A stretch of DNA of 64,000 nt, from positions 15,890,272 through 15,954,271 of the forward strand of contig NC_026659.2 of the NCBI RefSeq assembly GCF_000004075.3. The letters are read 5' to 3'. The notes under the pieces are model-generated. The model saw only the letters and a program-made list of their open reading frames with translations, ran no database searches and had not been told where the DNA came from. Within the stretch, counting starts at the first letter, position 1; every line of letters begins with the position of its first letter. Both the position numbers and the translations under genes were made by a program. The stretch is from Cucumis sativus (lineage: Eukaryota > Streptophyta > Magnoliopsida > Cucurbitales > Cucurbitaceae). Shown here piece after piece: positions 33,783 to 64,000 of the stretch.

Positions 33783-33829
33783 CTTATTCCCTATATACCT
33801 TATCGTGATTATCGATCTTCTTATAGCAA

Positions 33830-34229: not shown

Positions 34230-34239
34230 TCTCGATTGA

Positions 34240-40146: not shown

Positions 40147-40158
40147 CCCCAGGTTGAG

Positions 40159-42174: not shown

Positions 42175-43479
42175 TTTGCCAGCGTCGCGGATGCAATTTT
42201 TGATCTGCAATTAGTAAAGTCTAATTTTGTTTTTTGTTGTACTAATTATTTTATCATAAAGATAATAATCTGATTTTCTTATATTTTTATTTGATCCTCC
42301 AGCTCTCCATATTACATTATGCTCATGTTGTCTTACATTATTGCATTATATATATAGATGCGCATAAACATACAACTATTGTAACTCGAACAAAATTCAG
42401 TTGGAGAAATTCATTACTATTTTACCTTCTAGTTTTCTTTTATGTAAATAACTATTGAAAAGTTTCCTAAAGTATGTTGATGTTGAGCCATAGCAAGTAC
42501 TTTTAGAAGATGCAACTTATTCTCTCTAGGGAGAGATTCTTGAAACTGATCACAGATACAAAATTGTGTACATTTACAATAAGTTTAGGAATATTGTAAT
42601 AGGTAGCAAAATAAGTTGAGATATTTTGCAAATGTGTCTTCCAGATTTCTACTATTGCAAATATGAGAAAGAATTCAAGTTATGATTTTGGTTATTTCTT
42701 TATATCCATTTATCTTCTTGATGAACCTAAACAAAGTTCCTACTTTCTCTTTTTTTTTTTTTTTTCCATTTGCATGCATGATCTTTTTCTCCTCTCAACA
42801 TTTTTCTTCTTCGCAAGTGTGGTCTCAATCCTTATTTTCTTTGTCTTGACCATGATCAATAACTCAACTTTGAGGCGGTAGACGGTGTGGTGTTTGAGAA
42901 ATTGTCAAGTGATTTTTATTATCTAATATGAAGTGTATGATAACATTCTTAGATCTATAAATTTACAAATTATTTACATCTGCAAACCTTTTATCAAAAT
43001 AACAATGGACAGCAACAACGAGACAGTCAATTAATACATTATATAGCAAGTCTTCCATTTCGGGGAACAACTAACTATAGTCAAATTCATCACCATCTTC
43101 TCACAATTTCTGCCATTTTACAACAACTCCATAGGTCTTCCGCAACATTCCAAGTCAGTAGCTAATCTTAAGTACAAAAGTTCCTATGAGGGAGGCATAG
43201 TAGCTCTAAAATTTCTCATCCCACAAAAGTGTGTGTTGACGGACGATTAGAGAATTCGTCCAAGGAAAAGACTTAGAATTTTGAGGATTCATCTCAAGTT
43301 CAGTAGAGTTGTAATTTTCCTGTATTTCATTTTATTTGATTGAATTTATTAATGAAATATTTCGTTTATAATCACTTTTTGGTTCACTGTGGTTTACACG
43401 AGATCTTTATAGAGAAATTTAATTTGTGAACTCCAACTTGTATTAATAATGTATTTATGTTGATTTGATGCAATGAGTC
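42175..43479. other. 3' UTR and intergenic DNA
   Basis: It starts with the former 3' UTR of the RRG-like fragment. I see no further gene or repeat apart from poly-pyrimidine runs near 42748-42765. Confidence 0.45.
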
Positions 43480-43900
43480 ATTTGATCTCCTGATTCTCTC
43501 TCACTTAGATGCTTATGCTTGATTTGAGGAAGCAGAGCACGTGACGTTCTTGAAGTTGGAGTCTTGAAAGAAAGTTTGTATCTTCAAATGAAGGGAACTC
43601 CAGTATCTATAGAGTTCTTTAGTGGCTTTTATGAACTTGAGTCTGGTTGATTTATGGACCAGAGCTAAATTAAATTTATTTTTTTGGCTCGATTGAATTT
43701 TAGTCTTAACCGAGTAAATAATATTAATTAAACTAAAATAATTAATTTGATCCAAACATGTGTATCATCCAAATTAACAAATTTATATTTTTTTTCAATT
43801 TTAATTTGGGACACATGTCAATTTTTAATTAGTCTTGAATTCAACGATAATGCGTGATTGATCTAAAATTTTTTATTCTACAACTATAATAGTATTGGGG
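43480..43900 (-). repeat. Dispersed repeat family, copy C
   Basis: It shares its block order with 34240-34760 (copy B) and its left 100 bp with 10960-11075 (copy A, opposite strand). The block GACACATGTCAATTTTTAAT near 43808 is a clear marker. No open frame spans it. Confidence 0.6.
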
Positions 43901-44240
43901 AATTGCCAAAAATAGGCCAAAAATGGGGTAGAAAAAGAGTTTTAGGATTGATTGTAAAAAAGTTGAGATTTAGGACAAATTTTGGGTAGAGGGATTTAAA
44001 CCCGAGACCTCTTGGTTCTAAGTACATACATACAGGCGTTAGTTGAGCTTGGTTGACAATTTCTATACTTTTTTAAGTAACAAATAATTGGAGAAATTTT
44101 GTGGCTATATTTATGATTTTTCTCAAAGAACTTAAGGATCTTTATTTCCATTTCTATATATTGTGGGAATTTTTGCAGACATTGATATGGGTGAAACAAA
44201 GAAAGTAACCGAACAAACTAATATTGGACAGTTGGAGTTC

Positions 44241-44297
44241 AGCCCTGCACGACCCTTTGACAAAGCCCTGCACGACCCTTTGACAAAGCCCTGCAGC
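44241..44297 (+). repeat. 23-bp minisatellite, about 2.5 units
   Basis: AGCCCTGCACGACCCTTTGA plus CAA at 44241 repeats exactly at 44264; a third partial unit starts at 44287. It is GC-rich compared with its surroundings. Confidence 0.95.
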
Positions 44298-47254
44298 CCT
44301 TCCCTCACTTCTAGCCACCATTGTCCATTGTTCACACCTAACACAACCTAGTGGTAGCATGTCACTTCCTCCTTGCCAGCCAGTTCACCCCAGCCTGTAG
44401 GTCAGTCAGCCTGTTATAAAAGAAAAAAAGTCAATTTTTATGTTCTCCCCCAACCGACAGTGAGCTTCACGGTGACATCTATTCTAATCTACACTGACTT
44501 TCACCCTACTTCGACCACAACCAGACTTTCATAGTTAATAGGGTGGTAATTTTGCTGGTTTCGACATTATGTACATGCATGAGTTTAATCACCCCTCCCT
44601 CCTCTTTTCCTTTTCAGTTATGAGATTAAAGTGAGGGAATGACAAGAGAAGATCATGAACCAACGAAAATTACAGGTAATTATTGTTTTTCTTTTTTTCC
44701 TTAACTCTTTTTAGCCTTTGGAAATATTTAGCAAAGAACTCATGTATGATCTGCATTGAGACTGTTCTTGAGTTGCTTTCATCAGACAAGTTTATGAAGT
44801 TCTTGTTGTTGGTTTGTCATGATTTTGTTTCAATTTTTCTGGGAAACTAAGAGTTGTTACTCTTGATTTTTTTTCGAGTATTTCTCAGTCTAAGAGTAAT
44901 TTATCACTAAGCACATGATTTTGTTGGTAACATGCAAGATACAACCTGAATGGAATATCAAATACCATAATGTATTTGTCAGATCATGCAAGACAACTAT
45001 ACAAGCAGATAATTATGCTTATAGTAGCAATCGGCAATAAAATTATTTTTAAAATTTATTTCAGTGTTCTAATTACCTTGTTATCCTAATTCCTATCTTC
45101 TTTCGCCTTGCAGATGTGTTGAAATTTGTTGTCAGAATCTGTTTGAATGATGAACTTCATGCATACAATTGTTGTGGTTGTCACAACTGGAATCTATTAA
45201 ACAAAATCAAATACTTGATAATAACTACCTCTCCACACTGTTATGTTTCTTGTTTTTTCGTTTTCAATAATTTGATCGGTTTTAGACTTTTGATTTATTT
45301 TCAATTAGAAGTAAATGAATGAAGGAAAAAGATAACAGAAAAAGTTGATTTTACTTTTACTATCATTTTCCTATGCTTTTTAGTTTATGGGGATAGATAT
45401 TTGTTGGTGTTCCTTTTCTTAAGTTAGAAGAAAAAAGTTGGGGCATAACTTTACATGGACAATCAAGTCATTTTTTTTCTTAATTTGTGTCTTTTATAGC
45501 TAAAAGAAGAAAACTTAAGAATTACATATAAGTAGTATAAAGTCCTAATATAAGCTTGATAAAAAAATTTCCTTTAATTTTTACTCTGTTTATAAACTTA
45601 TGAGGTTACAAATTGCAATATATTTTCTAATACCATATTATGAATAATTTGGATAGCTGGTTGTGTTTGAAAACTGTATCTTCTTCCATCGTCATTGGTT
45701 TATCGTTGCTTTCTTTTCATTTTTGTTAAATTTCAACAAATATCAAGTTGATGTGACTTTTATTGTAGGATATGGGTAATGTTTACAATTTCAAGGATTA
45801 GAACTTTTCGTTTATGTTGTTTATCAGACCTTCTATACATCTCTACAATTATATGATCTTTATGGTGAATACATTGTGCAAGGCCGTATATTATAAGATC
45901 AATACTGTTTTTTAAAGGAAAGAAAAATATATAATGTGCTACACACCAAATTTTCTTCAAAGAAAAAAAAACAAATTAAATATATTCCATACTTTCTTTT
46001 TGTAGTTTGTGATCCTAGCTAAACTCAGGTTAAAGAGTTATGTTTATATTTGTATATTTGAATGGAGTTAATTGCAAATACAACGATTAGATACAAAATA
46101 TTTGCATATGTAACACATATTGTATTGCTAATATAAATATATCACTCATAGAATTTGCTATAATTATACTTGTTTAAACATACTAATACACACTTAATCT
46201 TCTTAGTTCAATAATGGTATGGAGTGGAACAAACTTCCTACGTTAGGATAAAAGGGTCACACAAATTACCTTCGTAGTAAACTTACTTTTGACATTATTC
46301 ATTTAACTTAGGGTAAGTATAATGGATTAGCAATTTTATGAATAATAATTAAGTATATAACAATATCTTTTAAAAATTGTAAATGTAGCAAAATATATTT
46401 GTGATAGATTTATATCGTTAATAGACTCTTATGGCTTATAAGCGAATGACATATGTGATTTAAAATAACTGCAGCAATTAGTTTAAAATGTTGTTATATA
46501 TCTACGAATTTCTTAATTGTTATATTCATTTGTCATTAGTTGTATTTAAAAGGGATGACCAGAAAAACATTAAAACAAGAGGTTTACTTTTGATAAAAGA
46601 AAATTTTAAATTTAAATTGCTAAAATAGCAAAATGTGCATGTCTAAGTGAAAATTATTCAACAATAATCACGGTCGAACTCAAACTCCCAAAAACAATGA
46701 TTACATTTATTCCCTAATTTGCTAATTCATTTTGGATTAGGTTTATTTTTGACAACAATAAAAAAATTGAGGTGTGGAACAATGATATTATAAATGCCAA
46801 AGAGTAGTTAAGATGCAAAATATAAATTTATATTTGCAATATTAGGTCAAAATGAATGATAATTTAGTTAGATTTTTGTCAAATAAATAAAAATGTGAAC
46901 CATACCAAAAGCAAATATAGATGCTTTTTTTTATTGAATTTTCATAGAATAAATAATAAAAAAAAGTAGAAAATATTTGCCTTTTAACTTTTTCTTTTTT
47001 AATTTTCATAGAAAATATTTAATCCAAAAATTAAACAAACTAAAAAAAGCTTCTCTCAATTTTCTTTTCCCTCTTCTTCAACCTCAACGGTCTCTTTTAT
47101 TTCAAATTTCTTTCCCCTTTTTCTTCTCCATCGGTTTACTCTGCCTCTCATCTCCCCTTCTCTTCTTCGTCTTCCTCAAACCCTGCGATTTCCTATCTCT
47201 CAAATTCCGTTTCGCTCTTCCTATACCTCCAAAATTTCGCTCTTCCTCTCTAAC
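44298..47254. other. Intergenic DNA
   Basis: No coding exon is supported. AT-rich sequence predominates, with a short cucurbit-type repeat phrase (GTGATAGATTTATATCGTTAATAGAC and similar) near 46390-46440. The CT-rich stretch 47050-47250 resembles the leader of the kinesin-12 gene whose first exon follows. Confidence 0.5.
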
Positions 47255-47886
47255 GTGAAGCAGCCAAGAAACTCTATCTTGCGACATACCCATCTCGTCG
47301 ATCCACCACTTTCTTCTTCTTCTAGCCTTAACGGTGCCGAAATCAAGGGCGGCAGACCCCCTCGGAAACCCAAGTCTTCCAAAGAAAATTCTCCACCGTC
47401 AGATCGGTTTTCGATTCCAAATCCTGAAGAGCCCGCTTCCACCTAGGCCTCCCTCTTCTAACCCGACCGTTCCTGAGAGTTCGCTATCACATACTGCTTT
47501 TACCTGCAATCCCGATCCAAGGTAATGCTAAAATAATGTTGCTAATATCTGGAATATGGTATTACTGAATTTAGTAAAAATAAATAAATAAATAAATAAA
47601 AGAAGTATACCTGTAACAACTAACAGTTGTGAGCACTGTCGGAAAAAGGCAATGAATTTGTAAATCGAAGTGCAGATAGTTCTGTTGTTTAGGATGGAAA
47701 AGCATGAGTATCACGTTTCTATATTCAACGGACTGGTACTTGTAAAATTTAGGCTCATAATCATTTTATTGTGCAGAGACTGGCAGATGGTTTAAGTAGC
47801 TGGTTCCGGAGGCAGAAGCTAACAGGTGCAGCTGGGGAGCGCTTGAAGGAAGCACGCAATATCAACCGATCACTCTCACAACTCGG
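47255..47886 (+). pseudogene. Kinesin-12 (PAKRP1/KIN-12-like) 5' fragment
   Basis: Exon 1 (47255-47521) begins GTGAAGCAG where family members begin ATGAAGCA, so the start codon appears lost. It reads KQPRNSILR, then PPRKPKSSKENSPPSD, and after a frame change near 47420 continues LKSPLPPRPPSSNP, the typical low-complexity N-terminus of KIN-12. The first frame stops at 47443-47445. A second exon piece (about 47777-47886) carries the motor-domain phrase QKLTGAAGERLKEARNINRS and ends SLSQLG at a GT donor, but the bases before it (equivalent to DLAGSER) are damaged. The exons expected between the two pieces are absent. KIN-12 proteins guide the phragmoplast in cell division; this copy cannot encode one. 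Confidence 0.72.
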
Positions 47887-47951
47887 GTAACCGATCAAAA
47901 CTATTGGGAGATATTTCAAATTTCATTTAAGCAGTGATCTTTCCAATGATT

Positions 47952-48766
47952 TTTTTCTTTATTTATTTTGTAATGTCAATTAGTTGGCTAATTATTTATC
48001 AGAATGCTTGTTGATATCGCTGCATGTTTTATTTTGTAATGTTTGTACTTTTTAGTTGTGATTTGTGAATATGCTAGGATTGATTTGATTTGCTCTTCTG
48101 ACTGTTAAGATCGGAATGATGTTGCTCATCTGAAAGAAGGCAGCATCATGTGCTTGAAGACTTGTGGAGTATGGAGAGTGAATGGTCAAATTTGAGGAAT
48201 CGTATCTGCTGGCTTTGTAGTCCAAACAGGTTGTCTGGCTAACTTTCTTTTTCTCATTTTCAACCAATTAGGATAGCTGTCATGTTTTTTGAATTCCTTG
48301 CCATTCTTGAGTAGTAACTTCGCATTTGTTTATTAAAAGGTTTTAATTAAGATTATGGTGTTCATAACTTTGTAGTGTCACACTAAATAACTTAAAAGAG
48401 TTAGTTTGACAGTTGACAAACATGATAGTAATGTGATAGTGAGTGCAAGGGTAAAAAGAGCTGCTTCTGTTGGGTTAAAGGGATGTTTGTATTTTTTAGT
48501 GTGATGTGTTTTGTTTTCAAGTTCGTTAGTAGACGTATTACTTAATTGAGCATTTTGATACCATAGCCAGTGTAGGGGAAGATGAATGGAGGGTGCTATG
48601 AGACTAGTTAAGACTTATATGTATCCTAATTTTAGTAATATATAAAATTGAGAGAATTTCCTTTGATTTTCAGGAACAAGGATGAATAATCAATGAAAAG
48701 GTTTATCCATGCAAGCTTCAAACCAAAGTCAAGGATGTCGATCCTTCCAGGGGAGTCCAAAGTTCC
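47952..48766 (+). repeat. 0.82-kb segmental duplication, copy 1
   Basis: It matches 52276-53099 in the same orientation, with by eye about 14 substitutions and a few small indels over 815 bp (about 98% identity). It lies between the kinesin fragment and the UPL6 exons and runs to within 70 bp of the first of them. Confidence 0.92.
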
Positions 48767-48833
48767 AAGATTGTTTATCCATGCATCATTTTGTCGATCT
48801 ACTAAGATTAAATTGTCTCGTTGTAGTTGCAAG

Positions 48834-50385
48834 ACTGGAACAATAGACGGCAGTTTACACCACCCAGTGACTTCCATGCTGACGCGATGAATGATTATTT
48901 CATTTCTCAGGTAATTGTTCTCAATGAATGTTTTGGTTCTAACGACCTGCTATCTGATCGTAATTCTAATTATTTACTTGGCCTTGTTTCTTTGTAGGCA
49001 GTGATAGAAAATACCAGAGCAAATGATATACACAAGCGAGTTCCCTTTTTAGTACCGCTTACTAGCAGGGTTAAGATTTTCACTGTAAGCAAGTTATTTT
49101 TTTGGTTTCCTTATCCACAATATTGAATTTCTTGGATGACTGTTAGTTATAGAAATATGTAAGATATTTTTTATTTATGGTTACTTTCTCTATAACTCAT
49201 TTCACAGACACAACTAGCAGCAGCTAGGCAAATGAATGGATCTCTTGCTGTTTTTGCCAGAAACCGGTTTAGAATTCGACGAAATCATATATTGGAAGAT
49301 GCTTTCAGTCAGATGAGTGCATTGTCTGAAGTTGATCTTCGAGGATCGGTAATTTCAGACTTCCATGATTTATGAAAAATGACATTGTTATCTTACTTTT
49401 TTCTATCTTTTTCTTTGCCCTCGTGAAAACGACCCCATCCCTCTTCTGCATCCTATAGTTGCAGAGTTACTTGTAATTGTTTATTAGTTTTTTCTTGTTT
49501 GTGTTGGGTCAATTGCTTCACTTTTCTGCATGCAGATACGTGTGTCTTTTGTTAATGAATTTGGAGTTGAGGAGGCAGGAATTGATGGTGGTGGTATTTT
49601 TAAAGATGTCATGGAGAACATTACACAGGCAGCCTTTGACGTGCAGTATGGTTTATTTAAGGTTATCACGACATTCCTTATTATTAGCATGGCATGGCTT
49701 TGTTAATCCTGTAGTATTATTGGATAACATGAAGCGTGATGAGACAGCCATAGTTGTTTGAAATCGCTTTTCAAAATAAAAATAGTTGTGAGATCACATT
49801 TCATAAAATTTCAGTAATATGTGGGTATGTATTGTTCATTTTTTCTAATATAAGTTATTTTCTGCTTGGTAATCCAGCAAATTGCTGACCATTTGCTCTA
49901 CCCCAATCCTGGTTCGGGAATGATACATGAGCAACATCTCCAGTTTTTCCATTTCCTCGAAGTTCTTTTGGCAAAGGTATGGCCATAATTCCCAATCATA
50001 CATGGAATTTACTTTGGTTGATTAGTTTTTTCTTTTTTTGGATAAGGATATCCTGGTCTTGGCCTTATCATGGAAGATTCTTATATATCTTTCACCCCAT
50101 ACTTTGGTTGAATTTTGGAACATTAATGTATCGCCTGACATTCATAAATACAATGTCATAATTTGAAATCTGCTGTCTTCCTACATTATGCATGTTTTTC
50201 TGTTATTGAAGTTGCTGCCCGGTTGTGCTAAAAGTTCTCAAGCAGTCATGCTAAAAGATCTCAATCACATTAAATGATTTTTGACAGGATGTTGTTGTTT
50301 TACCCTTCTTCTTGTAGGTCATGTTTGAAGTAACTCTTGTTGATATACTTTTTGCAACATTCTTCTTGAGCAAGTTAAAACAGAA
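48834..50385 (+). pseudogene. UPL6-like HECT ubiquitin ligase fragment (HECT N-lobe exons)
   Basis: Six exons with good splice sites: 48834-48910 (DWNNRRQFTPPSDFH), 48998-49084 (FLVPLTSRVKIFT), 49208-49348 (RNRFRIRRNHILEDAF), 49536-49661 (GVEEAGIDGGGIFKDVMENI), 49878-49976 (YPNPGSGMIHEQHLQFFHFL) and 50318-50385 (ATFFLSKLKQK). They are open and match the UPL6 type of plant HECT E3 (Arabidopsis At3g17205) more closely than UPL7. The sequence ends within the HECT N-lobe. The C-lobe with the catalytic cysteine is missing, and a Ty3/gypsy fragment starts about 0.5 kb later. No start codon is attached, so no ligase can be made. One donor (aag|gttatc) is weak. Confidence 0.8.
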
Positions 50386-50876
50386 GTAAGGTTTTTAAAG
50401 ATTTACTGTCTTACTGTTTTGTATTTTGTGCTGATCCACTAATCGTAGTATTGATGGTCATGACAATGACTAGTTGCAAGTTACTTGAATTTTTAGGGTT
50501 CTAAAAATCTTACATTTTATTATGGGTGCACTGCCTACTAATGAGATTGTCAATTGCTAACTTCCAAATGTTGAATTTGGGATTTCCATGCTACATTCAC
50601 TTTCTTGATCTGCAATTACAGAGCTACTCTATACTGGAATAAAGTCTCATCTGAACTGTACATTGCTTTTGATGCTGTAATTGCAAAGCTAGGAAATCTT
50701 TATGTATAATGCCTTTTTTTTTTATCATTTATTAATGAAAATGAGAAGCCTTTTTATAAGCTGGAGATTACAAGAGTTGTTAAACTAACTTGGGGTTGAG
50801 TTAGTTTACTTATAACTAACTCAAGATACAAAATTGTTAATTCAAATAACTAATCCTAAACTATAAAAATGGTAAT

Positions 50877-52258
50877 TCAAACACCTCCTCTAGGATAAAA
50901 CTCAATAAAATCCATACTAATATCTTCCCACACACGGTCCGGAATGGGTAATGCTTGAAGGAAACCAGCCGGAGTTAAAGACAAGTATTTGGCTTGCTGA
51001 CACACGGAACATTCAGCAACATAGGTGCGGATATGGGCTTTCATACCTCGCCAATATACCTCCCTTGCTAGCCTTTGATATGTTTTCAATGCACCATGAT
51101 GTCCCCCTATCGGGCTGTTATGGAACTCAGCTAATAATAAAGTAATATTAGGTGAATCCTCCTCCTTGTAGCAAATATCCATCTGGAGCTGGCTGTCCAT
51201 TTATCAAGGACAATCGAATATTGTTAAGAGATTCATTTCCAGCCACTTGATCGATGAAAACCGAAGGGTTTAGCCCGCCCACAATACTTACGAGGCCCAA
51301 TTCAAATACCGGTGGTAATCTCTATAAGGCATCGGCCGCTTTGTTTTCCAATCCTTTCTTGTACTCAATCACAAAATCATACCCCAATAGTTTAGCGATC
51401 CATCTCTGATATTCTCCCCGATAGCCCGTTGTTCAAGAAGAAACTTCAAACTTTTCTGATCTGTACGCACCACAAAAGGCTTACCCAATAGATATGGTCG
51501 CCATTTTTGAACAGCCAGCACTATTGCCATAAGCTCCCGTTCATAAACAGCCTTAAACCTATGGGTAATAGGTAAAGCTTGACTGAAAAAGGCCACTGGT
51601 CGTTGATTTTGCATTAGGACAGCCCCAATACCCACACCCGAAGCATCAGTTTCCAGCACAAAACTTTGTGAAAAATCAGGAATACCTAGCATCGGGACAG
51701 ACATCATTGCTGACTTTTAACTGCTGAAATGCGTTCTCGGTCGTCTCATTCCACTTAAAGTTACCTTTTTTTAACAGTTGTGTCAAGGGGGGCAGCACAA
51801 TAGAACCGTAGTTTGCAACGAATTTCCGATAATACCCCGTTAGCCCCAAAAAACCCACCTAGCTCCTTCACGTTCTTGGGTGCTGGCCATTTAACCATCG
51901 CTTCTATTTTTGTTGGATCCGCTGCCACCCCCTCTGAAGAAATAACATGGCCCAAGTATTCAATTTTGTCAACCGCAAATTGGCATTTTTTAAAGTTGGC
52001 TACCAGTTGATGAGCTACTAGAGTTTCCAAAACCATTGCCAATTGGTGCAAATGCTCGTCCAAGGACTTGCTGTAAATTAAGATGTCATCAAAGAAAACC
52101 AAAACAAACTTGCGTAAATATGGGCGAAGAACATCACTCATGATTGATTGGAATGTTGCCGAAGCGTTTCAACCCAAACAGCATCACAAGGAATTCATAG
52201 GGCCCCTCGTGGGTTCGAAACGCTGTTTTGTGAACATCGGCTGCCCGCACAAATAGAA
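50877..52258 (-). mobile_element. Ty3/gypsy pol remnant (RT, RNase H, integrase start)
   Basis: In minus-strand order the pieces are RT (KTAFRTHEGPYEFLVM, then VLVFFDDILIYSKSLDEHL with the FxDD active-site box, and FKKCQFAVDKIEYLGHVIS), the RT-RNase H linker (GFLGLTGYYRKFVANYG), RNase H (FVLETDASGVGIGAVL, YERELMAIVLAVQKW), and the integrase zinc finger (HHGALKTYQRL ... CSVCQQAK) up to DISMDFIEF. At least three frame changes or stops break it. Both ends are truncated: upstream within RT at about 52258 and downstream just after the first acidic residue of the integrase core. No LTR is attached. Confidence 0.88.
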
Positions 52259-52275
52259 AAATATCAGAATGCTTG

Positions 52276-53099
52276 TTTTTCTTTATTTATTTTGTAATGT
52301 CAATTAATTGGCTAATTATTTATCAGAATGCTTGTTGATATCGCTGCATGTTTTATTTTGTAATGTTTGTACTTTTTAGTTGTGATTTGTGAATATGCTA
52401 GGATTGATTTGATTTGCTCTTCTGACTGTTAAGATCGGAATGATGTTGCTCATCTGAAAGTAGGCAGCATCATGTGCTTGAAGACTTGTAGAGTATGGAG
52501 AGTGAATGGTCAAATTTGAGGAATCATATCTGCTGGCTTTGTAGTCCAAACAGGTTGTCTGGCTAACTTTCTTTTTCTCATTTTCAACCAATTAGGATAG
52601 CTGTCATGTTTTTTGAATTCCTTGCCATTCTTGAGTAGTAACTTCGCATTTATTTATTAAAAGGTTTTAATTAAGATTATGGTGTTCATAACTTTGTAGT
52701 CACACTAAATAACTTAAAAGAGTTAGTTTGATAGTTGACAAACATGATAGTAATGTGATAGTGAGTGCAAGGGTAAAAAGAGTTGCTTCTGTTGGGTTAA
52801 AGTGATGTTTGTGTTTTTTAGTGTGATGTGTTTTGTTTTCAAGTTCGTTAGTAGACGTATTACTTAATTGAAAATTTTGATACCATAGCCAGTGTAGGGG
52901 AAGATGAATGGAGGGTGCTATGAGACTAGTTAAGACTTATATGTATCCTAATTTTAGTAATATATAAAATTGAGAGAATTTCCTTTGATTTTCAGGAACA
53001 AGGATGAATAATCAATGAAAAAGGAATGAAAAGGTTTATCCATGCAAGCTTCAAACCAAAGTCATGGATGTCGATCCTTCCAGGGGAGTCCAAAGTTCC
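52276..53099 (+). repeat. 0.82-kb segmental duplication, copy 2
   Basis: Direct copy of 47952-48766. It starts at the edge of the gypsy remnant, after a 15-bp phrase (ATATCAGAATGCTTG) that also occurs inside the segment, and stops before the UPL6 exon that follows copy 1. Confidence 0.92.
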
Positions 53100-53735
53100 C
53101 CCCTTATTTTTCTCCATTTACTTTGATTTTCAAAAGCTTTTAGGACAGAAAAAGCAATTTTTTGAGTGGGTGTGGGTAATAGCTTGCTTAGCTTGCATGT
53201 TTAGTGTAAACTTGGGGGTTCAAATTTTGCCCAAATTTCAAAATTTTTCAGAATTCTTTCCATACAATAATGAGCATTATACCTTCTTAGCTTAATTAGA
53301 TCTTGCATAAAAAGCATGATTGGCAACCCTTGAGCACTGAGCTCGGGTTTATGATGTGAAATTCTGAATTTTGATGAGTATATGTGCTGAAATTTGAGCA
53401 TAAGCTGCTGTCTTTTTTGTTTTAAGCTCCTTTTAGCTATTTCTTATTGAGATGTGAATGCATGATTGAGAAAATGGTATGTGTGTTGTGAATGCTTGAT
53501 TGAATGTATAATAAATAAGTGCATGGATACTTTTCTAGCTTTGTCTTCCTTTGTTGCTTTGTCGTGACTTACCTATGATGCACTTAGTCCAAACCTAGCC
53601 TAGATAGAGTAAAAAAGGATAGGAGGCTCTCTTTAGAAACTGGGATGGTTTTAACAAATTTGTCTTGTCAAACATGAGTTAGAAGCCTCTTGTCTAGCCA
53701 CAATGAACTAAATCCCTTTAGAAAAGGGTCGACAT
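53100..53735. other. Left flank of the tandem array
   Basis: Non-coding DNA of unknown origin between the duplication and the array. It is less AT-rich than typical intergenic DNA here. It may be part of the same element that gave rise to the array, such as untranslated sequence of an LTR retrotransposon; I see no domain to prove it. Confidence 0.35.
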
Positions 53736-56093
53736 TAACAAAACTTATTGTCACTTCAAAGGGAGCAATCAAACTTAATTAGTAACTAAATGTAGAACCA
53801 TAGAAAGGTTAGCCCACCGATTCTAGCAAGGCCTAGTTACCACATTGCATACCAAAGAAAGAAAAGAGAGACTTGACAATGCAAAACATAAAACAGTAAG
53901 ACAATCAAGAGCTATAAAAAAAATCAAACAACATATCCAATATACATTAGAAAAAGCCCATAAAAAATGGGGGAAAACTTCACTTTTGGCCTAACCAAAA
54001 CCAGACTACCTACTCTTAGCGTTCTAAACATAGCATCGAGTTTGATGAGGGCTTTGAAAAGAGGAGGAATCCTCCCCGATCCACATTAGGGGGAAAACAA
54101 GGCTTGTTGTCACTTCGAAGGGAGCAGTCAAACTTAGCATTGAGTTTGACGAGGGCTTTGAAAAGAGGAGGAATCCTCCCCGTTCCATAGTAGGGGGAAA
54201 ACGAGGCTTGTTGTCACTCCGAAGGGAGCAGTCAAACTTAGAAACTAAGTTTAGAACCATAGAAAGGTTAGCCCACCGGTTCTAGCAAGACCTTGTTACC
54301 ACATTGCATACCAAAGAAACAAAAGAGAGACTTGCAAATGCAAAACGTAAAAAGGTGAGACAATCAAGAGCTATAAAAAAACAAACAACACATGTAATAT
54401 ACATTAGAAAAATCCCATAAAAAAACAAAGAGCCAACTTGGTTCGGTCAAGTAGAATGTGTTGAGTTCCCTAACTATCAGAGCTTTTAGCAGAAAACTTT
54501 ACTTTTGGCCTAACCAAAACCAAACCACCTACTCTTAGCGTTCTAAACTTAGCATCGAGTTTGATGAGGGCTTTGAAAAGAGGAGGAATCCTCCCCGATC
54601 CACATTAGGGGGAAAACAAGGCTTGTTGTCACTCCGAAGGGAGCAGTCAAACTTAGCATTGAGTTTGACGAGGGCTTTGAAAAGAGGAGGAATCCTCCCC
54701 GTTCCATAGTAGGGGGAAAACGAGGCTTGTTGTCACTCCGAAGGGAGCAGTCAAACTTAGAAACTAAGTTTAGAACCATAGAAAGGTTAGCCCACCGGTT
54801 CTAGCAAGACCTTGTTACCACATTGCATACCAAAGAAACAAAAGAGAGACTTGCAAATGCAAAACGTAAAAAGGTGAGACAATCAAGAGCTATAGACAAA
54901 CAAACAACACATGTAATATACATTAGAAAAATCCCATAAAAAAAGAAAAAGCCAACTTGGTTCGGTCAAGTAGAATGTGTTGAGTTCCCTAACTATCAGA
55001 GCTTTTAGCAGAAAACTTTACTTTTGGCCTAACCAAAACCAAACCACCTACTCTTAGCGTTCTAAACTTAGCATCGAGTTTGATGAGGGCTTTGAAAAGA
55101 GGAGGAATCCTCCCCGATCCACATTAGGGGGAAAACAAGGCTTGTTGTCACTCCGAAGGGAGCAGTCAAACTTAGCATTGAGTTTGACGAGGGCTTTGAA
55201 AAGAGGAGGAATCCTCCCCGTTCCATAGTAGGGGGAAAACGAGGCTTGTTGTCACTCCGAAGGGAGCAGTCAAACTTAGAAACTAAGTTTAGAACCATAG
55301 AAAGGTTAGCCCACCGGTTCTAGCAAGACCTTGTTACCACATTGCATACCAAAGAAACAAAAGAGAGATGCAAATGCAAAACTTAAAAAGGTTAGACAAT
55401 CAAGAGCTATAAAAAAACAAACAACACATGCAATATACATTAGAAAAATCCCATAAAAAAACAAAGATCCAACTTGGTTCGGTCAAGTAGAATGTGTTGA
55501 GTTCCCTAACTATCAGAGCTTTTAGCAGAAAACTTTACTTTTGGCCTAACCAAAACCAAACCACCTACTCTTAGCGTTCTAAACTTAGCATCGAGTTTGA
55601 TGAGGGCTTTGAAAAGAGGAGGAATCCTCCCCGATCCACATTAGGGGAAAACAAGGCTTGTTGTCACTCCGAAGGGAGCAGTCAAACTTAGCATTGAGTT
55701 TGACGAGGGCTTTGAAAAGAGGAGGAATCCTCCCCGTTCCATAGTAGGGGGAAAACGAGGCTTGTTGTCACTCCGAAGGGAGCAGTCAAACTTAGAAACT
55801 AAGTTTAGAACCATAGAAAGGTTAGCCCACCGGTTCTAGCAAGACCTTGTTACCACATTGCATACCAAAGAAACAAAAGAGAGACATGCAAATGCAAAAC
55901 GTAAAAAGGTTAGACAATCAAGAGCTATAAAAAAACAAACAACACATGCAATATACATTAGAAAAATCCCATAAAAAAGCAAAGATCCAACTTGGTTCGG
56001 TCAAGTAGAATGTGTTGAGTTCCCTAACTATCAGAGCTTTTAGCAGAAAACTTTACTTTTGGCCTAACCAAAACCAAACCACCTACTCTTAGC

Positions 56094-56509
56094 GTTCTAA
56101 ACTTAGCATCGAGTTTGATGAGGGCTTTGAAAAGAGGAGGAATCCTCCCCGTTCCATAGTAGGGGGAAAACGAGGCTTGTTGTCACTCCGAAGGGAGCAG
56201 TCAAACTTAGAAACTAAGTTTAGAACCATAGAAAGGTTAGCCCACCGGTTCTAGCAAGACCTTGTTACCACATTGCATACCAAAGAAACAAAAGAGAGAC
56301 TTGCAAATGCAAAACGTAAAAAGGTTAGACAATCAAGAGCTATAAAAAAACAAACAACACATGCAATATACATTAGAAAAATCCCATAAAAAAAGCAAAG
56401 AGCCAACTTGGTTCGGTCAAGTAGAATGTGTTGAGTTCCCTAACTATCAGAGCTTTTAGCAGAAAACTTTACTTTTGGCCTAACCAAAACCAAACCACCT
56501 ACTCTTAGC
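56094..56509 (+). repeat. Short array unit (one subrepeat deleted), first
   Basis: 416 bp. It starts with the left part of subrepeat 1 (TTTGATGAGG) and ends with the right part of subrepeat 2 (TTCCATAGTAGG), as expected from unequal recombination between the two subrepeats. Confidence 0.9.
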
Positions 56510-57545
56510 GTTCTAAACTTAGCATCGAGTTTGATGAGGGCTTTGAAAAGAGGAGGAATCCTCCCCGATCCACATTAGGGGGAAAACAAGGCTTGTTGTC
56601 ACTCCGAAGGGAGCAGTCAAACTTAGCATTGAGTTTGACGAGGGCTTTGAAAAGAGGAGGAATCCTCCCCGTTCCATAGTAGGGGGAAAACGAGGCTTGT
56701 TGTCACTCCGAAGGGAGCAGTCAAACTTAGAAACTAAGTTTAGAACCATAGAAAGGTTAGCCCACCGGTTCTAGCAAGACCTTGTTACCACATTGCATAC
56801 CAAAGAAACAAAAGAGAGATGCAAATGCAAAACGTAAAAAGGTTAGACAATCAAGAGCTATAAAAAAACAAACAACACATGCAATATACATTAGAAAAAT
56901 CCCATAAAAAAACAAAGATCCAACTTGGTTCGGTCAAGTAGAATGTGTTGAGTTCCCTAACTATCAGAGCTTTTAGCAGAAAACTTTACTTTTGGCCTAA
57001 CCAAAACCAAACCACCTACTCTTAGCGTTCTAAACTTAGCATCGAGTTTGATGAGGGCTTTGAAAAGAGGAGGAATCCTCCCCGATCCACATTAGGGGGA
57101 AAACAAGGCTTGTTGTCACTCCGAAGGGAGCAGTCAAACTTAGCATTGAGTTTGACGAGGGCTTTGAAAAGAGGAGGAATCCTCCCCGTTCCATAGTAGG
57201 GGGAAAACGAGGCTTGTTGTCACTCCGAAGGGAGCAGTCAAACTTAGAAACTAAGTTTAGAACCATAGAAAGGTTAGCCCACCGGTTCTAGCAAGACCTT
57301 GTTACCACATTGCATACCAAAGAAACAAAAGAGAGACATGCAAATGCAAAACGTAAAAAGGTTAGACAATCAAGAGCTATAAAAAAACAAACAACACATG
57401 CAATATACATTAGAAAAATCCCATAAAAAAGCAAAGATCCAACTTGGTTCGGTCAAGTAGAATGTGTTGAGTTCCCTAACTATCAGAGCTTTTAGCAGAA
57501 AACTTTACTTTTGGCCTAACCAAAACCAAACCACCTACTCTTAGC

Positions 57546-57961
57546 GTTCTAAACTTAGCATCGAGTTTGATGAGGGCTTTGAAAAGAGGAGGAATCCTCC
57601 CCGTTCCATAGTAGGGGGAAAACGAGGCTTGTTGTCACTCCGAAGGGAGCAGTCAAACTTAGAAACTAAGTTTAGAACCATAGAAAGGTTAGCCCACCGG
57701 TTCTAGCAAGACCTTGTTACCACATTGCATACCAAAGAAACAAAAGAGAGACTTGCAAATGCAAAACGTAAAAAGGTTAGACAATCAAGAGCTATAAAAA
57801 AACAAACAACACATGCAATATACATTAGAAAAATCCCATAAAAAAAGCAAAGAGCCAACTTGGTTCGGTCAAGTAGAATGTGTTGAGTTCCCTAACTATC
57901 AGAGCTTTTAGCAGAAAACTTTACTTTTGGCCTAACCAAAACCAAACCACCTACTCTTAGC
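57546..57961 (+). repeat. Short array unit, second
   Basis: 416 bp, with the same fused subrepeat and the same flanking markers as the short unit at 56094. The two are therefore copies of one deletion event rather than independent ones. Confidence 0.9.
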
Positions 57962-59515
57962 GTTCTAAACTTAGCATCGAGTTTGATGAGGGCTTTGAAA
58001 AGAGGAGGAATCCTCCCCGATCCACATTAGGGGGAAAACAAGGCTTGTTGTCACTCCGAAGGGAGCAGTCAAACTTAGCATTGAGTTTGACGAGGGCTTT
58101 GAAAAGAGGAGGAATCCTCCCCGTTCCATAGTAGGGGGAAAACGAGGCTTGTTGTCACTCCGAAGGGAGCAGTCAAACTTAGAAACTAAGTTTAGAACCA
58201 TAGAAAGGTTAGCCCACCGGTTCTAGCAAGACCTTGTTACCACATTGCATACCAAAGAAACAAAAAGAGACATGCAAATGCAAAACGTAAAAAGGTTAGA
58301 CAATCAAGAGCTATAAAAAAACAAACAACACATGCAATATACATTAGAAAAATCCCATAAAAAACAAAGATCCAACTTGGTTCGGTCAAGTAGAATGTGT
58401 TGAGTTCCCTAACTATCAGAGCTTTTAGCAGAAAACTTTACTTTTGGCCTAACCAAAACCAAACCACCTACTCTTAGCGTTCTAAACTTAGCATCGAGTT
58501 TGATGAGGGCTTTGAAAAGAGGAGGAATCCTCCCCGATCCACATTAGGGGAAAACAAGGCTTGTTGTCACTCCGAAGGGAGCAGTCAAACTTAGCATTGA
58601 GTTTGACGAGGGCTTTGAAAAGAGGAGGAATCCTCCCCGTTCCATAGTAGGGGGAAAACGAGGCTTGTTGTCACTCCGAAGGGAGCAGTCAAACTTAGAA
58701 ACTAAGTTTAGAACCATAGAAAGGTTAGCCCACCGGTTCTAGCAAGACCTTGTTACCACATTGCATACCAAAGAAACAAAAGAGAGACATGCAAATGCAA
58801 AACGTAAAAAGGTTAGACAATCAAGAGCTATAAAAAAACAAACAACACATGCAATATACATTAGAAAAATCCCATAAAAAAGCAAAGATCCAACTTGGTT
58901 CGGTCAAGTAGAATGTGTTGAGTTCCCTAACTATCAGAGCTTTTAGCAGAAAACTTTACTTTTGGCCTAACCAAAACCAAACCACCTACTCTTAGCGTTC
59001 TAAACTTAGCATCGAGTTTGATGAGGGCTTTGAAAAGAGGAGGAATCCTCCCCGATCCACATTAGGGGGAAAACAAGGCTTGTTGTCACTCCGAAGGGAG
59101 CAGTCAAACTTAGCATTGAGTTTGACGAGGGCTTTGAAAAGAGGAGGAATCCTCCCCGTTCCATAGTAGGGGGAAAACGAGGCTTGTTGTCACTCCGAAG
59201 GGAGCAGTCAAACTTAGAAACTAAGTTTAGAACCATAGAAAGGTTAGCCCACCGGTTCTAGCAAGACCTTGTTACCACATTGCATACCAAAGAAACAAAA
59301 GAGAGACATGCAAATGCAAAACGTAAAAAGGTTAGACAATCAAGAGCTATAAAAAAACAAACAACACATGCAATATACATTAGAAAAATCCCATAAAAAA
59401 GCAAAGATCCAACTTGGTTCGGTCAAGTAGAATGTGTTGAGTTCCCTAACTATCAGAGCTTTTAGCAGAAAACTTTACTTTTGGCCTAACCAAAACCAAA
59501 CCACCTACTCTTAGC

Positions 59516-59930
59516 GTTCTAAACTTAGCATCGAGTTTGATGAGGGCTTTGAAAAGAGGAGGAATCCTCCCCGTTCCATAGTAGGGGGAAAACGAGGCTT
59601 GTTGTCACTCCGAAGGGAGCAGTCAAACTTAGAAACTAAGTTTAGAACCATAGAAAGGTTAGCCCACCGGTTCTAGCAAGACCTTGTTACCACATTGCAT
59701 ACCAAAGAAACAAAAGAGAGACATGCAAATGCAAAACGTAAAAAGGTTAGACAATCAAGAGCTATAAAAAAACAAACAACACATGCAATATACATTAGAA
59801 AAATCCCATAAAAAAGCAAAGATCCAACTTGGTTCGGTCAAGTAGAATGTGTTGAGTTCCCTAACTATCAGAGCTTTTAGCAGAAAACTTTACTTTTGGC
59901 CTAACCAAAACCAAACCACCTACTCTTAGC
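59516..59930 (+). repeat. Short array unit, third
   Basis: 415 bp with the fused subrepeat, but its downstream markers (GAGACATGC, GCAAAGATCC) differ from the other two short units. It may be an independent deletion or a later exchange. Confidence 0.88.
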
Positions 59931-61680
59931 GTTCTAAACTTAGCATCGAGTTTGATGAGGGCTTTGAAAAGAGGAGGAATCCTCCCCGATCCACATTAGG
60001 GGGAAAACAAGGCTTGTTGTCACTCCGAAGGGAGCAGTCAAACTTAGCATTGAGTTTGACGAGGGCTTTGAAAAGAGGAGGAATCCTCCCCGTTCCATAG
60101 TAGGGGGAAAACGAGGCTTGTTGTCACTCCGAAGGGAGCAGTCAAACTTAGAAACTAAGTTTAGAACCATAGAAAGGTTAGCCCACCGGTTCTAGCAAGA
60201 CCTTGTTACCACATTGCATACCAAAGAAACAAAAAGAGAGACATGCAAATGCAAAACGTAAAAAGGTTAGACAATCAAGAGCTATAAAAAAACAAACAAC
60301 ACATGCAATATACATTAGAAAAATCCCATAAAAAAGCAAAGATCCAACTTGGTTCGGTCAAGTAGAATGTGTTGAGTTCCCTAACTATCAGAGCTTTTAG
60401 CAGAAAACTTTACTTTTGGCCTAACCAAAACCAAACCACCTACTCTTAGCGTTCTAAACTTAGCATCGAGTTTGATGAGGGCTTTGAAAAGAGGAGGAAT
60501 CCTCCCCGATCCACATTAGGGGGAAAACAAGGCTTGTTGTCACTCCGAAGGGAGCAGTCAAACTTAGCATTGAGTTTGACGAGGGCTTTGAAAAGAGGAG
60601 GAATCCTCCCCGTTCCATAGTAGGGGGAAAACGAGGCTTGTTGTCACTCCGAAGGGAGCAGTCAAACTTAGAAACTAAGTTTAGAACCATAGAAAGGTTA
60701 GCCCACCGGTTCTAGCAAGACCTTGTTACCACATTGCATACCAAAGAAACAAAAGAGAGACATGCAAATGCAAAACGTAAAAAGGTTAGACAATCAAGAG
60801 CTATAAAAAAACAAACAACACATGCAATATACATTAGAAAAATCCCATAAAAAAGCAAAGATCCAACTTGGTTCGGTCAAGTAGAATGTGTTGAGTTCCC
60901 TAACTATCAGAGCTTTTAGCAGAAAACTTTACTTTTGGCCTAACCAAAACCAAACCACCTACTCTTAGCGTTCTAAACTTAGCATCGAGTTTGATGAGGG
61001 CTTTGAAAAGAGGAGGAATCCTCCCCGATCCACATTAGGGGGAAAACAAGGCTTGTTGTCACTCCGAAGGGAGCAGTCAAACTTAGCATTGAGTTTGACG
61101 AGGGCTTTGAAAAGAGGAGGAATCCTCCCCGTTCCATAGTAGGGGGAAAACGAGGCTTGTTGTCACTCCGAAGGGAGCAGTCAAACTTAGAAACTAAGTT
61201 TAGAACCATAGAAAGGTTAGCCCACCGGTTCTAGCAAGACCTTGTTACCACATTGCATACCAAAGAAACAAAGAGAGACATGCAAATGCAAAACGTAAAA
61301 AGGTTAGACAATCAAGAGCTATAAAAAAACAAACAACACATGCAATATACATTAGAAAAATCCCATAAAAAAACAAAGATCCAACTTGGTTCGGTCAAGT
61401 AGAATGTGTTGAGTTCCCTAACTATCAGAGCTTTTAGCAGAAAACTTTACTTTTGGCCTAACCAAAACCAAACCACCTACTCTTAGCGTTCTAAACTTAG
61501 CATCGAGTTTGATGAGGGCTTTGAAAAGAGGAGGAATCCTCCCCGATCCACATTAGGGGGAAAACAAGGCTTGTTGTCACTCCGAAGGGAGCAGTCAAAC
61601 TTAGCATTGAGTTTGACGAGGGCTTTGAAATGAGGAGGAATCCTCCTCGTTCCATAGTAGGGGGAAAACGAGGCTTGTTA

Positions 61681-61892
61681 TGAGGATTTTCCCTTGGGAA
61701 ATTATTATAAAAGTGACAAATGAAAATATTGATTGGTTTCTGAACCACTGTGGTGCCCTTGTTTGTTATTTTCCCTTATGTTGCTTTATGCTTGGTTTTC
61801 TAATTGATAATATCATCTTAAAGTGTTCTAATTGATAGCACATATCTCTTAGTGTTAGTACTTTCTTACCTTTCTCTCTCTTACATATATAG
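61681..61892. other. Right flank of the array, probable UPL6 intron
   Basis: A stretch of about 210 bp between the abrupt array edge and the UPL6 exon acceptor at 61892. It has intron-like composition with a pyrimidine-rich end. Confidence 0.45.
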
Positions 61893-63412
61893 GGGATATG
61901 TTGAGCATTTTCGCTAGCAAGGATTATGTACTTAACAAGGCCTTAGTGGATTAGAGAGTTAAGAAATTTGCATATGCTTGCATCCAGACTGTACACCATA
62001 ATAGGTAATTAGTTTTTTCCATTTCAACATTCCTTATTAAAAACTTATCCTTTTTAACGTTTTGAATGGAAAAACAGATGTTTGATCTATCATTGTTGAT
62101 TTTGTTGGCTTTCTATGCTATGATCCTTTAATTGTATATGATATATTTCTTTTGTTGAAAAGTGATATATTTCTTAGATTTTGTTCAGATATATATAATT
62201 GACATAAAGGTTTTTTTACCTTCAGCTAACGAATTCAGACTAATCTTATTTATATATATGATAAGTTGTCTTTATTTTTCCTCTGAATTATTCTTACTTG
62301 ATGTTGTTCTTGATAGAAACCAATTGAGGAATCAACTTTTGGCTGCACCTGTGAACTCTAACACACCTGCAACTCTATTGTTAGACACAATTATTTTCTT
62401 ATTACAACCTGAACTCCCATGGGTTTGTAAAATTGTTGGTTACTTCCTGGAAAGAAATGCATATGCGTTGATTAGGGATATCACTTTGACAGGGAAGGTA
62501 TAAATGTACTTCCTTTTTTTTCTACTTGCAAGTGGTTTTTTTTATAGACATTCTGTTTTGCCGTGGATTATCCTCTGCAGGTGTTTTCAGAGAACTAATT
62601 CACACTCAAACTATTGCAGGAAAGTGCAGATTCACATTCCAAGAGTTCATTGGCTTCTCTAGAACATCTGCTGTCTCTTTTGAGTTCTCATGTTGGTAAG
62701 AAGCCATGTTGTTGCCCACGTGTTGATCCCAATTGGAGTTTCTCCTCTCAAATTCTTACTCTTCCTTTACTGTGGCGGACATTCACATTTCACACCTCTC
62801 TCTACCCAATGGACAAAGTTGCATGTGTCATCCTCTACTAGGTTTGTGTACCTTGCTGTTTGGATATAATGGCGTTAGTAATGGTTTAAAGGTCATGTTT
62901 TCTCAATAACGAGAAACATAACATGCATGTACTTCGTTTAAAAAAGAAAAAAAAACTCTATAGATTTTTTTTGAAAAGATCTTTTTAAGTACAACTTGGT
63001 GTGGGACATAAAAAATTATGACTATTCTAGCATACAGAATGGAGTTAGTTCCAGTACTCTGGAGTTTTATTAAAAACTGCCACGAGAATAAAAAATGGTC
63101 ATCCTTTTCAGAGAAATTGGCATATTTATCAGGAGATGCACCTGGTTGGCTATTACCTTTGGCTGTTTTTTGTCCTGTGTACAAGTAAGATTATCTTCTT
63201 TATTCCTGTTCCTCTACTTTTGAATTTCGCTTTAATTCCTCATCTGATGTTATATAATTATATGGTATGTTATAAGATTCGGCATGTCCTGATCACTTCT
63301 TTCCTTATCAATCAGGCACATGCTCATAATAATTGACAATGAGGAGTTTTATGAGCAGGAGAAGCCACTATCGTTAAAGGACATCAGATGCCTGATCGTT
63401 ATTTTAAGACAG
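61893..63412 (+). pseudogene. UPL6-like fragment (N-terminal and mid-protein exons)
   Basis: Exons are 61893-62004 (FASKDYVLNKALVD, stop, RVKKFAYACIQTVHHNR), 62317-62497 (NQLRNQLLAAPVN, LPWVCKIVGYFLERN), from 62620 to about 62775 (LEHLLSLLSSHVGKKPCCC, DPNWSFSSQILTLPLLW), 63112-63184 (LAYLSGDAPGWLLPL) and 63316-63412 (NEEFYEQEKPLSLKDIRCL). All match UPL6-type ligases in order. Damage is clear: TAG at 61952-61954 replaces an aromatic codon, and roughly 200 residues of family sequence between the third and fourth pieces are missing. The first exons with the IQ-like start are absent. These exons encode parts N-terminal to the HECT pieces at 48.8-50.4 kb but lie downstream of them. Confidence 0.8.
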
Positions 63413-63573
63413 GTGAGCTCTTTAATTCCATCATATGTCCAAAAAGATACCCATACCCTCCCACTCAAGACACTTAAGTAATTGCTCAGAGAAATAACAA
63501 AATACTTGGCCCCACTCTAACAAACACATTCCTAAGGGCCCACACAAATAGAAAAATACCAACTAACTCTCAA
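63413..63573. other. UPL6 intron start and gypsy 3' untranslated part
   Basis: Begins with the GT donor after the last UPL6 exon and passes into the 3' non-coding part of the minus-strand gypsy element. The phrase CACAAATAGAAAAATA at about 63544 also occurs at about 52248, at the truncated RT end of the other gypsy remnant. Confidence 0.45.
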
Positions 63574-64000
63574 TCATTCTTTCTTCTTCCTATTCTTGTC
63601 TCTACGGGAATACACGTTTACTATGGGAGGTCTATCATTATCCGCCCCCCAAAGAGCCACCTTGTCCTCAAGGTGGAATTCAGGAAACTGTTCTTGAATA
63701 AGAGCAGCTTGTTCCCATGTTGCACTTTCAAGTGTCCCCTCACTCCAACGGATCAAAACTTCTAAGTTGTCCTCCTTTTCTATTGTTTTGCGAACTCCCA
63801 ATACTTCTACTGGAGACACTTGCATAGACAAATCAGCAGCCAAATCTTTTGGAATTGGGAATAATGGCCTGTTTGAACCCACGACCTTGGTCGGACGCTT
63901 TGAATCTGGCCCACAGAAGCTATCGGAATTCTGTCCAGCTGCCGATTTTCTTTCTATCCTCCTTCCATTGATACCAGTCCAAAGCTTCCCCCTCCAAGCA
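63574..64000 (-). mobile_element. Ty3/gypsy deletion derivative: gag joined to chromodomain end
   Basis: From the window edge on the minus strand, the first about 110 bases read LEGEALDWYQWKEDRKK, then SWTEFR, a stop and LLWARF, which is a gag core. From about 63885 the frame changes and reads GSNRPLFPIPKDL, then VLIRWSEGTLESATWEQAAL, FPEFHLEDKVALW and a stop near 63574, which is the chromodomain-like end of gypsy integrase. Protease, RT, RNase H and integrase core are missing between them, so this is an internally deleted copy. The element continues past the window. Confidence 0.72.

What the first reader, a model, noticed from the sequence alone, without database searches (positions are those of the whole stretch)
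53736..61680. Tandem array with a three-unit higher-order structure between gene fragments
Sixteen marker positions give spacings of 517-520 bp with three of 415-416 bp. Small variants show that a long-long-short trimer of 1,451 bp was duplicated as a block (55059-56509 and 56510-57961). Near-identity of units points to recent homogenisation. Higher-order structure is usual in centromeric satellites, but here it is a short array inside a gene-fragment mosaic, so it may be a satellite in the making or the expanded repeat of an LTR retrotransposon. I do not recognise the unit.
Basis: partly seen in the sequence, partly recalled or inferred. Interest (0 to 1): 0.72.

Follow-up and report, generated by a model that had tools for sequence, protein, structure and literature searches.

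The report
Expandable repeat inside duplicated cucumber DNA
A short stretch of repeated DNA in cucumber has different lengths in more than two dozen near-identical copies of a much larger duplicated block, giving a natural view of how a tandem repeat grows and shrinks, though the process itself is ordinary.

Summary
The array is real and correctly placed. Its 519-bp unit is a ~311-bp core plus two 104-bp sub-repeats. The three short units (415-416 bp) of the window have one sub-repeat each, a hybrid of the two, as unequal recombination would leave. One long-long-short block was duplicated almost perfectly (1 substitution, 1 gap), with a third, altered block. That is local: of six arrays read, only C5 and C16 show clear short units, and no significant three-unit period is found. 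It is not an established higher-order satellite. The array lies in a large block present on five large and many small contigs of cucumber 9930 v3. In 28 of 40 listed left flanks a right flank follows after 464 to 11,757 bp; arrays read run from one diverged unit to about 22 markers. The left side is Ty3/gypsy debris with an 832-bp direct repeat; the right edge is a breakpoint in a fragment of a protein gene, probably HECT-type, related to C6:7,515-8,650. In 7 of 10 loci sequence beyond the 832-bp repeat is shared, which favours spread by large duplication. The origin of the unit is unresolved.

The parts
53736..61680 (+). Tandem array: one diverged first unit, 12 long (517-520 bp) and 3 short (415-416 bp) marker-to-marker units, and a partial end unit
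53744..54011 (+). Diverged first unit, about 60 bp shorter in the core; also seen in two copies with a collapsed array
   Evidence: 88% identity over 224 query positions to later units; spacing 459; reading
54545..54752 (+). Example of the two 104-bp sub-repeats of a long unit (6 differences)
56085..56500 (+). Short unit 1: hybrid of sub-repeats 1 and 2
57537..57952 (+). Short unit 2: identical to short unit 1
59507..59921 (+). Short unit 3: same hybrid type
55059..57961 (+). Long-long-short block duplicated in tandem (55059-56509 and 56510-57961)
   Evidence: 1 substitution, 1 gap
53100..53735 (.). Left flank between the 832-bp repeat and the array, shared by many copies
52268..53099 (.). 832-bp direct repeat, copy A (LTR-like; no target-site duplication seen by eye)
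47945..48766 (.). 832-bp direct repeat, copy B, 96.8% identical to A; another B-type copy lies on C5 beyond the window's right end
50877..52168 (-). Broken Ty3/gypsy reverse transcriptase, RNase H and integrase zinc-finger fragments
   Evidence: Pfam PF00078, PF17917, PF17921
61673..62788 (+). Fragment of a protein gene with introns kept (probably HECT-type, inferred); the array ends at its left breakpoint; in-frame stop near 61955
   Evidence: 1072 of 1120 columns identical to C6:7,532-8,650; this exon itself matched no Pfam family or PDB chain; HECT-like stretches lie further right on the same strand in the C45 copy
62789..63443 (+). Continuation shared with other copies; exon-like frames by eye only
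   Evidence: no Pfam match for the frames tried
63444..63889 (-). Chromodomain-like retroelement fragment, repeated elsewhere in the block
   Evidence: PF00385, E 0.00026, below the curated cutoff
25257..64000 (.). Part of the large duplicated block that lies in the window; sharp left edge at 25257, right end beyond the window and not found
   Evidence: 10 of the 63 rows start at query 1258, one more at 1264 (21 of 1,761 candidates scored); probes 4000-5000 and 20500-21700 have no other full-length match

Best explanation
The array is a variable-number tandem repeat inside a large block that has been amplified in the cucumber genome; neighbouring copies lie about 27-75 kb apart on several contigs. 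Shown: the unit carries a built-in 104-bp duplication; unit number differs widely between copies that share flanks; short units are hybrids of the two sub-repeats; one long-long-short block was duplicated. Inferred: unequal exchange or break repair between misaligned units and 104-bp sub-repeats adds and removes sub-units, whole units and multi-unit blocks, and the large block itself was multiplied by segmental or tandem duplication, carrying the array with it. No function is needed; it behaves as neutral by-product DNA.
For: 28 of the 40 left flanks used pair with a right flank in the same orientation, gaps 464-11,757 bp. Arrays that were read: one diverged unit (C45 at 247 kb, C72), 11 markers (C45), 16 (C5), 16 (C83, fetch slightly short), 19 (C2, fetch cut), 22 in two pieces (C52). 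All 3 short units of the window read 1-1-2-2-2-2 at the six sites that tell the sub-repeats apart; C16 has two of that type, one 1-1-1-1-1-1 and one 1-1-2-2-2-1. The block duplication differs by 1 substitution and 1 gap. In 7 of 10 fetched loci the sequence beyond the 832-bp repeat on the left is shared with the window; 10 of 63 rows share a left edge at 25257; rows on C6 (20 of 20), C16 (10 of 10), C49 (9 of 9) and C4 (5 of 5) have one orientation (several rows belong to one copy).
Against: The assembly was not checked with reads. Search lists were capped (40 of 287 candidates scored), so counts are lower bounds; 12 of 40 left and 12 of 40 right flanks have no partner in these lists. A gap is not always all array: in C7 and C27 about 2.2 kb of the gap lies outside the array hits. 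Spacing of block copies is irregular, so a strict tandem array of blocks is not shown. Orientation is mixed on C44, C52, C45, C27, C2 and C5. In 4 of 10 fetched loci the sequence right of the array is different. Exchange and replication slippage cannot be told apart.
Confidence: 0.72

Rival explanations
1. The array is the hypervariable 3' region of a Ty3/gypsy LTR retrotransposon coded on the minus strand, with the 832-bp repeats as its LTRs, as in plant elements whose UTR repeats seed satellites.
For: 832-bp direct repeats on both sides of the array in C45, C83 and C63 and on the right in C4 (right copies 97.1-97.8% identical to window copy A); a purine-rich stretch beside copy A on the minus strand; a gag-like fragment (E 0.011, below cutoff) and a chromodomain-like one on the minus strand to the right.
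Against: No matching target-site duplication at the repeat edges by eye; the LTR-start and primer-site patterns tried hit only distant or pol positions and an insertion in C83. Between the chromodomain piece and the array lies a gene fragment with introns on the other strand. Sequence outside the 832-bp repeats is shared between copies.
Confidence: 0.2
2. A giant DNA transposon (Mutator-like or Helitron-like) carries the gene fragment and the array and spread by transposition.
For: Sharp left edge at 25257 in 10 of 63 rows; introns kept in the gene fragment; PMC12395194 (passages) reports cucumber tandem repeats as internal parts of Mutator and CACTA annotations.
Against: No inverted copy of the edge sequence in the window or in the loci held; the 256 bp at the edge recur there only in direct orientation relative to the array. 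Right end not found; copies are truncated or recombined at different points.
Confidence: 0.12
3. A centromeric or pericentromeric satellite with true higher-order structure.
For: High unit identity; the window lies at 15.9 Mb of a 31.9-Mb contig; a duplicated three-unit block.
Against: Short arrays (28 inter-flank gaps sum to 97,474 bp) at a fixed place in a larger block; no significant three-unit period; no 177-bp period in the array, whereas the cucumber centromere repeat has a 177-bp monomer (PMC11220175, passages). Copies on C4 and some on C2 lie near contig ends.
Confidence: 0.03
4. An assembly artefact produced the array or its block duplication.
For: Repeat-rich, many copies on small contigs; the 9930 assembly is said to miss about 120 Mb (PMC12395194, passage).
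Against: Locus-specific variants, hybrid units and different lengths; both flanks recovered at 28 places.
Confidence: 0.07

Closest known systems
Short tandem arrays in the 3' UTR of Ogre/Tat LTR retrotransposons that seed satellites (PMC7004042, passages)
   Same: Short variable arrays at a fixed place in a larger high-copy repeat, with retroelement domains near by, as possible seeds of a satellite
   Different: Here a gene fragment with introns abuts the array, sequence beyond the putative LTRs is shared between copies, and LTR status is not shown
Cucumber tandem repeats internal to Mutator/CACTA annotations (PMC12395194, passages)
   Same: Same species; tandem repeats as internal parts of longer repeated elements, proposed there to grow by illegitimate recombination or break repair
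   Different: The passages name dominant units near 180, 360, 540 and 720 bp and a 531-bp unit; whether the 519-bp unit is among its repeats was not checked
Cucumber centromeric satellite CentCs/Type III, 177-bp monomer (PMC11220175, passages)
   Same: Tandem repeat in the same genome
   Different: 519 is not a multiple of 177; arrays are short and embedded; no sequence comparison with CentCs was made
Variable-number tandem repeats in segmental duplications (recalled general knowledge)
   Same: Unit number varies between paralogous copies; sub-repeats favour unequal exchange
   Different: Nothing essential

Membership tests
Variable-number tandem repeat in a segmental duplication | Same flanks, different unit number in different copies | tested here: met
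   28 of 40 left flanks paired, gaps 464-11,757 bp; arrays read in whole or part at eight loci (C5, C16, C83, C2, C52, C72, two on C45) confirm different unit numbers
Variable-number tandem repeat in a segmental duplication | Larger flanking block shared between copies | tested here: met
Satellite with higher-order structure | Regular multi-unit period along the array | tested here: not met
   C5 lag 3 p = 0.08, best of lags 2-5 p = 0.36; best-lag p 0.47-0.99 in C16, C83, C45, C2; uncorrected exceptions C16 lag 6 p = 0.03 and neighbour similarity (lag 1) in C45 p = 0.013 and C83 p = 0.047
Satellite with higher-order structure | Long free-standing arrays | tested here: not met
   Longest of 28 inter-flank gaps 11,757 bp; assembly gaps could hide longer ones
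Satellite with higher-order structure | CENH3 enrichment | not testable with these tools
   no ChIP data
LTR retrotransposon UTR array | Array between two LTRs of one element | tested here: inconclusive
   832-bp repeats on both sides in 3 of 10 fetched loci (C45, C83, C63; C4 has one on the right and a B-type one further left), but edges lack clear LTR signals
LTR retrotransposon UTR array | Target-site duplication and independent insertion sites | tested here: not met
   no matching duplication by eye; outer left flank shared in 7 of 10 loci
LTR retrotransposon UTR array | Array downstream of gag-pol on one strand | tested here: inconclusive
   weak gag-like and chromodomain-like fragments lie beyond a gene fragment on the other strand
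Mutator-like or Helitron element | Shared termini (inverted repeats or Helitron ends) | tested here: inconclusive
   one sharp edge at 25257, no inverted partner in held sequence; Helitron ends not searched

The most novel reading that the evidence does not exclude
The whole block is one very large mobile or self-amplifying unit of cucumber heterochromatin that carries a captured gene fragment and its own expanding tandem repeat, so that each copy is a separate satellite nursery whose length can be read locus by locus.
Probability: 0.12. Interest if true: 0.6.

Novelty: new member of a known kind. Interest (0 to 1): 0.35.

Why it matters
More than two dozen near-identical copies with the same flanks and from one to about 22 units form a natural series for the early steps of tandem-repeat growth: gain and loss of a 104-bp sub-unit, of whole units and of a three-unit block. 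It also shows that a higher-order look can arise from a single block duplication without any evidence of a centromeric role, and that a large duplicated block with a gene fragment occupies many small contigs of the reference.

Tried and rejected
LTR reading of the 832-bp repeats: patterns for usual LTR starts and an initiator-methionine primer site gave hits only at distant window positions (16173, 33270, 34976), inside pol pieces, and inside an insertion in C83. Terminal inverted repeat at the 25257 edge: none in the sequence held. Parent of the array in the C6 relative of the gene fragment: no match of the unit in C6:1-10,000. Rfam on the whole window: no match at the gathering scores. PDB sequence search with the exon: none. 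A period-3 test over the array: not significant. Locus-wise clades in the unit tree: not found; labels cluster more than shuffled labels but no locus is one clade. My early idea that every inter-flank gap is array was wrong for C7 and C27; the largest, on C52, was then fetched and is array. Searches for a described 519-bp cucumber unit listed no paper that names one in the titles, abstract starts or passages I saw; supplements were not open to me. The pericentromeric repeat CsRP1 (PMC3039625, passages) could not be compared because its sequence was not at hand. Of the other literature calls, 58 gave the retrotransposon parallel cited and 67 nothing used further.
Full report
The observation. 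A scan of the window gives 16 exact markers with 12 spacings of 517-520 bp and 3 of 415-416 bp, the same copies as an independent repeat finder. Tandem Repeats Finder adds a 104-bp period inside long units. A long unit is a core of about 311 bp followed by two 104-bp sub-repeats that differ at 6 of 104 sites; a short unit has one. At those 6 sites all three short units of the window read sub-repeat 1 at the first two and sub-repeat 2 at the last four, so a 104-bp piece was lost by recombination inside the identical stretch between them. In C16 the script found four single-sub-repeat units: two of the same type, one that is sub-repeat 1 at all six sites, and one reading 1-1-2-2-2-1, so there was more than one event.

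The trimer. Blocks 55059-56509 and 56510-57961 differ by 1 substitution and 1 gap; the stretch 58479-59930 differs by 3-4 substitutions and 4-5 gap columns. By class the units 3 to 15 run a b S a b S a b b S b b a. A tandem abSabS appears in 1.3% of shuffles, but the classes were drawn after looking, and mean divergence at lag 3 against shuffled order gives p = 0.08, p = 0.36 for the best of lags 2-5. The fair statement is one clear block duplication and a third altered block.

Whose genome. Contig C5, which holds the window at 15,890,272-15,954,271, is 31,913,682 bases long, exactly the N50 printed for cucumber 9930 v3 in PMC12395194 (passage); the total of 226.6 Mb fits the 211 + 15 Mb given there.

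Other copies. A search with the 1,451-bp block gave 164 matches, 30 of 377 candidates scored, not all rows shown. Probes from the left flank (42 matches, 40 of 287 candidates scored) and the right flank (41 matches, 40 of 55 scored) were paired by contig, strand and order after leaving out three small split pieces: 28 of 40 left flanks have a partner; gaps run from 464 to 11,757 bp, in sum 97,474 bp. Twelve left and twelve right flanks have no partner in these capped lists. Gaps are not always pure array: on C7 and C27 about 2.2 kb lies outside the array hits. The largest gap, on C52, was fetched and is array: 19 and 3 markers in the two pieces. Four gaps are 464-546 bp; the two that were read (C45 at 247 kb and C72) hold just the diverged unit with two sub-repeats. 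Whether such copies are unexpanded or collapsed cannot be told.

Units between loci. Seventy-two units from five arrays were aligned (C5 15, C16 14, C83 15, C45 10, C2 18). The C2 fetch was cut by the tool, the C83 fetch ended slightly before the array's left end, and one C16 entry of 934 bp is two units with a missed marker. Mean substitution within loci is 0.2-0.9% except C16 (2.8%), between loci 0.5-2.0%; C5 units are closer to C45 units (0.61%) than to each other (0.93%). Identical rows occur in different loci. So arrays are not homogenised locus by locus; they share recent ancestry or exchange. C83, C45 and C2 hold no short unit in what was read, though C83 has two 536-bp units and C2 one of 455 bp; C52 has none in 18 spacings, but one spacing of 928 bp in its second piece could hide one.

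The surroundings. Left of the array lie 636 bp, then an 832-bp direct repeat (52268-53099) whose second copy is at 47945-48766 (96.8%), with broken Ty3/gypsy reverse transcriptase, RNase H and integrase pieces between them on the minus strand. A further 832-bp copy lies about 6 kb right of the array in C45, C83, C4 and C63, and 680 bp of it nearer in C6a and C6b. I tried to read these as LTRs. A purine-rich stretch flanks copy A on the minus strand, but no matching target-site duplication or primer site was seen. In 7 of 10 fetched loci (C45, C83, C6a, C2, C80, C63, C71) the sequence left of copy A is also shared with the window; C6b and C6c carry copy A's array side joined to the B surroundings, and C4 lacks copy A next to its array. 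Hence most of these copies are not independent insertions bounded by these repeats.

Right of the array the window matches C6:7,515-8,650 at about 95-96%, starting within a few bases of the array's edge. The C6 sequence has open frames where the window copy has an in-frame stop near 61955. The exon compared matches no Pfam family and no PDB chain. About 2-4 kb further right, on the same strand of the C45 copy, two stretches match the HECT domain, E 2.3e-8 and E 0.0038, below the curated cutoff. That exon and HECT stretches belong to one gene is inferred; the name UPL would be my recall, and whether the C6 relative has a HECT domain was not checked. A chromodomain-like retroelement fragment (63444-63889) lies between. 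The array thus sits at a junction between retroelement debris and a gene fragment. In 4 of 10 fetched loci (C6a, C6b, C6c, C80) the array is followed by other sequence. The unit has no match in C6:1-10,000.

The block. Probes at 4000-5000 and 20500-21700 have no other full-length match; the probe at 33300-34300 has 17 others at 91-96% (40 of 369 candidates scored); and a 9.3-kb query shows 10 of 63 rows starting at window 25257. Copies follow one another at irregular distances: right flanks on C49 56.4 kb apart, on C52 67.1 and 63.0 kb, on C16 31.0 and 40.7 kb, on C4 27.1 kb; the 33.3-kb probe recurs 63.9 kb on along C5 and 75.2 kb on along C52. Rows on C6, C16, C49 and C4 all have one orientation, but C44, C52, C45, C27, C2 and C5 are mixed. 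Copies on C5 and C6 lie for the most part near the middle of those contigs, those on C4 and some on C2 near contig ends, so 'pericentromeric' is not shown. This favours segmental or tandem duplication over insertion of a mobile element, without proving it. A 256-bp piece at the 25257 edge recurs in direct orientation beside the gag-like fragment in four loci, which I cannot explain.

Verdict. A real, ordinary but instructive case: a variable tandem repeat in a large duplicated block, with visible recombination products. Known parallels are retrotransposon-borne seed arrays (PMC7004042, passages) and cucumber repeats inside Mutator and CACTA annotations (PMC12395194, passages). Membership in the first is not established.

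Noticed in passing
G000 C6:14,041,387-14,166,535 (L037 in part): Five copies of the gene-fragment exon at 86-93% amino-acid identity, two neighbouring pairs about 23.15 kb apart: an older, separate run of the same junction; the one read (L037) has the diverged unit and little more array.
   Followed up: partly
window 25257-25512 and L009 6058-6312, L011, L017, L026: A 256-bp piece marks the left edge of the duplicated block and recurs in direct orientation near the HECT-like stretches, next to a gag-like fragment.
   Followed up: partly
L013, L015, L021, L020 (C6 and C80, right of the array): In four loci the array is followed by a different set of tandem repeats with copies about 77-96% alike.
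   Followed up: no
L012 and L014, about 3.6 kb insertion (array-orientation 1034-4605 in C83): An insertion relative to C45, shared by C83 and one C6 locus, with a methionine-type primer-site pattern in C83.
   Followed up: no
window 37699-38822, minus strand: Open frames that read like a broken Ty1/copia reverse transcriptase (by eye, not searched).
   Followed up: no
window 32217-32333: TAT trinucleotide run of 39 copies, 98% matches.
   Followed up: no
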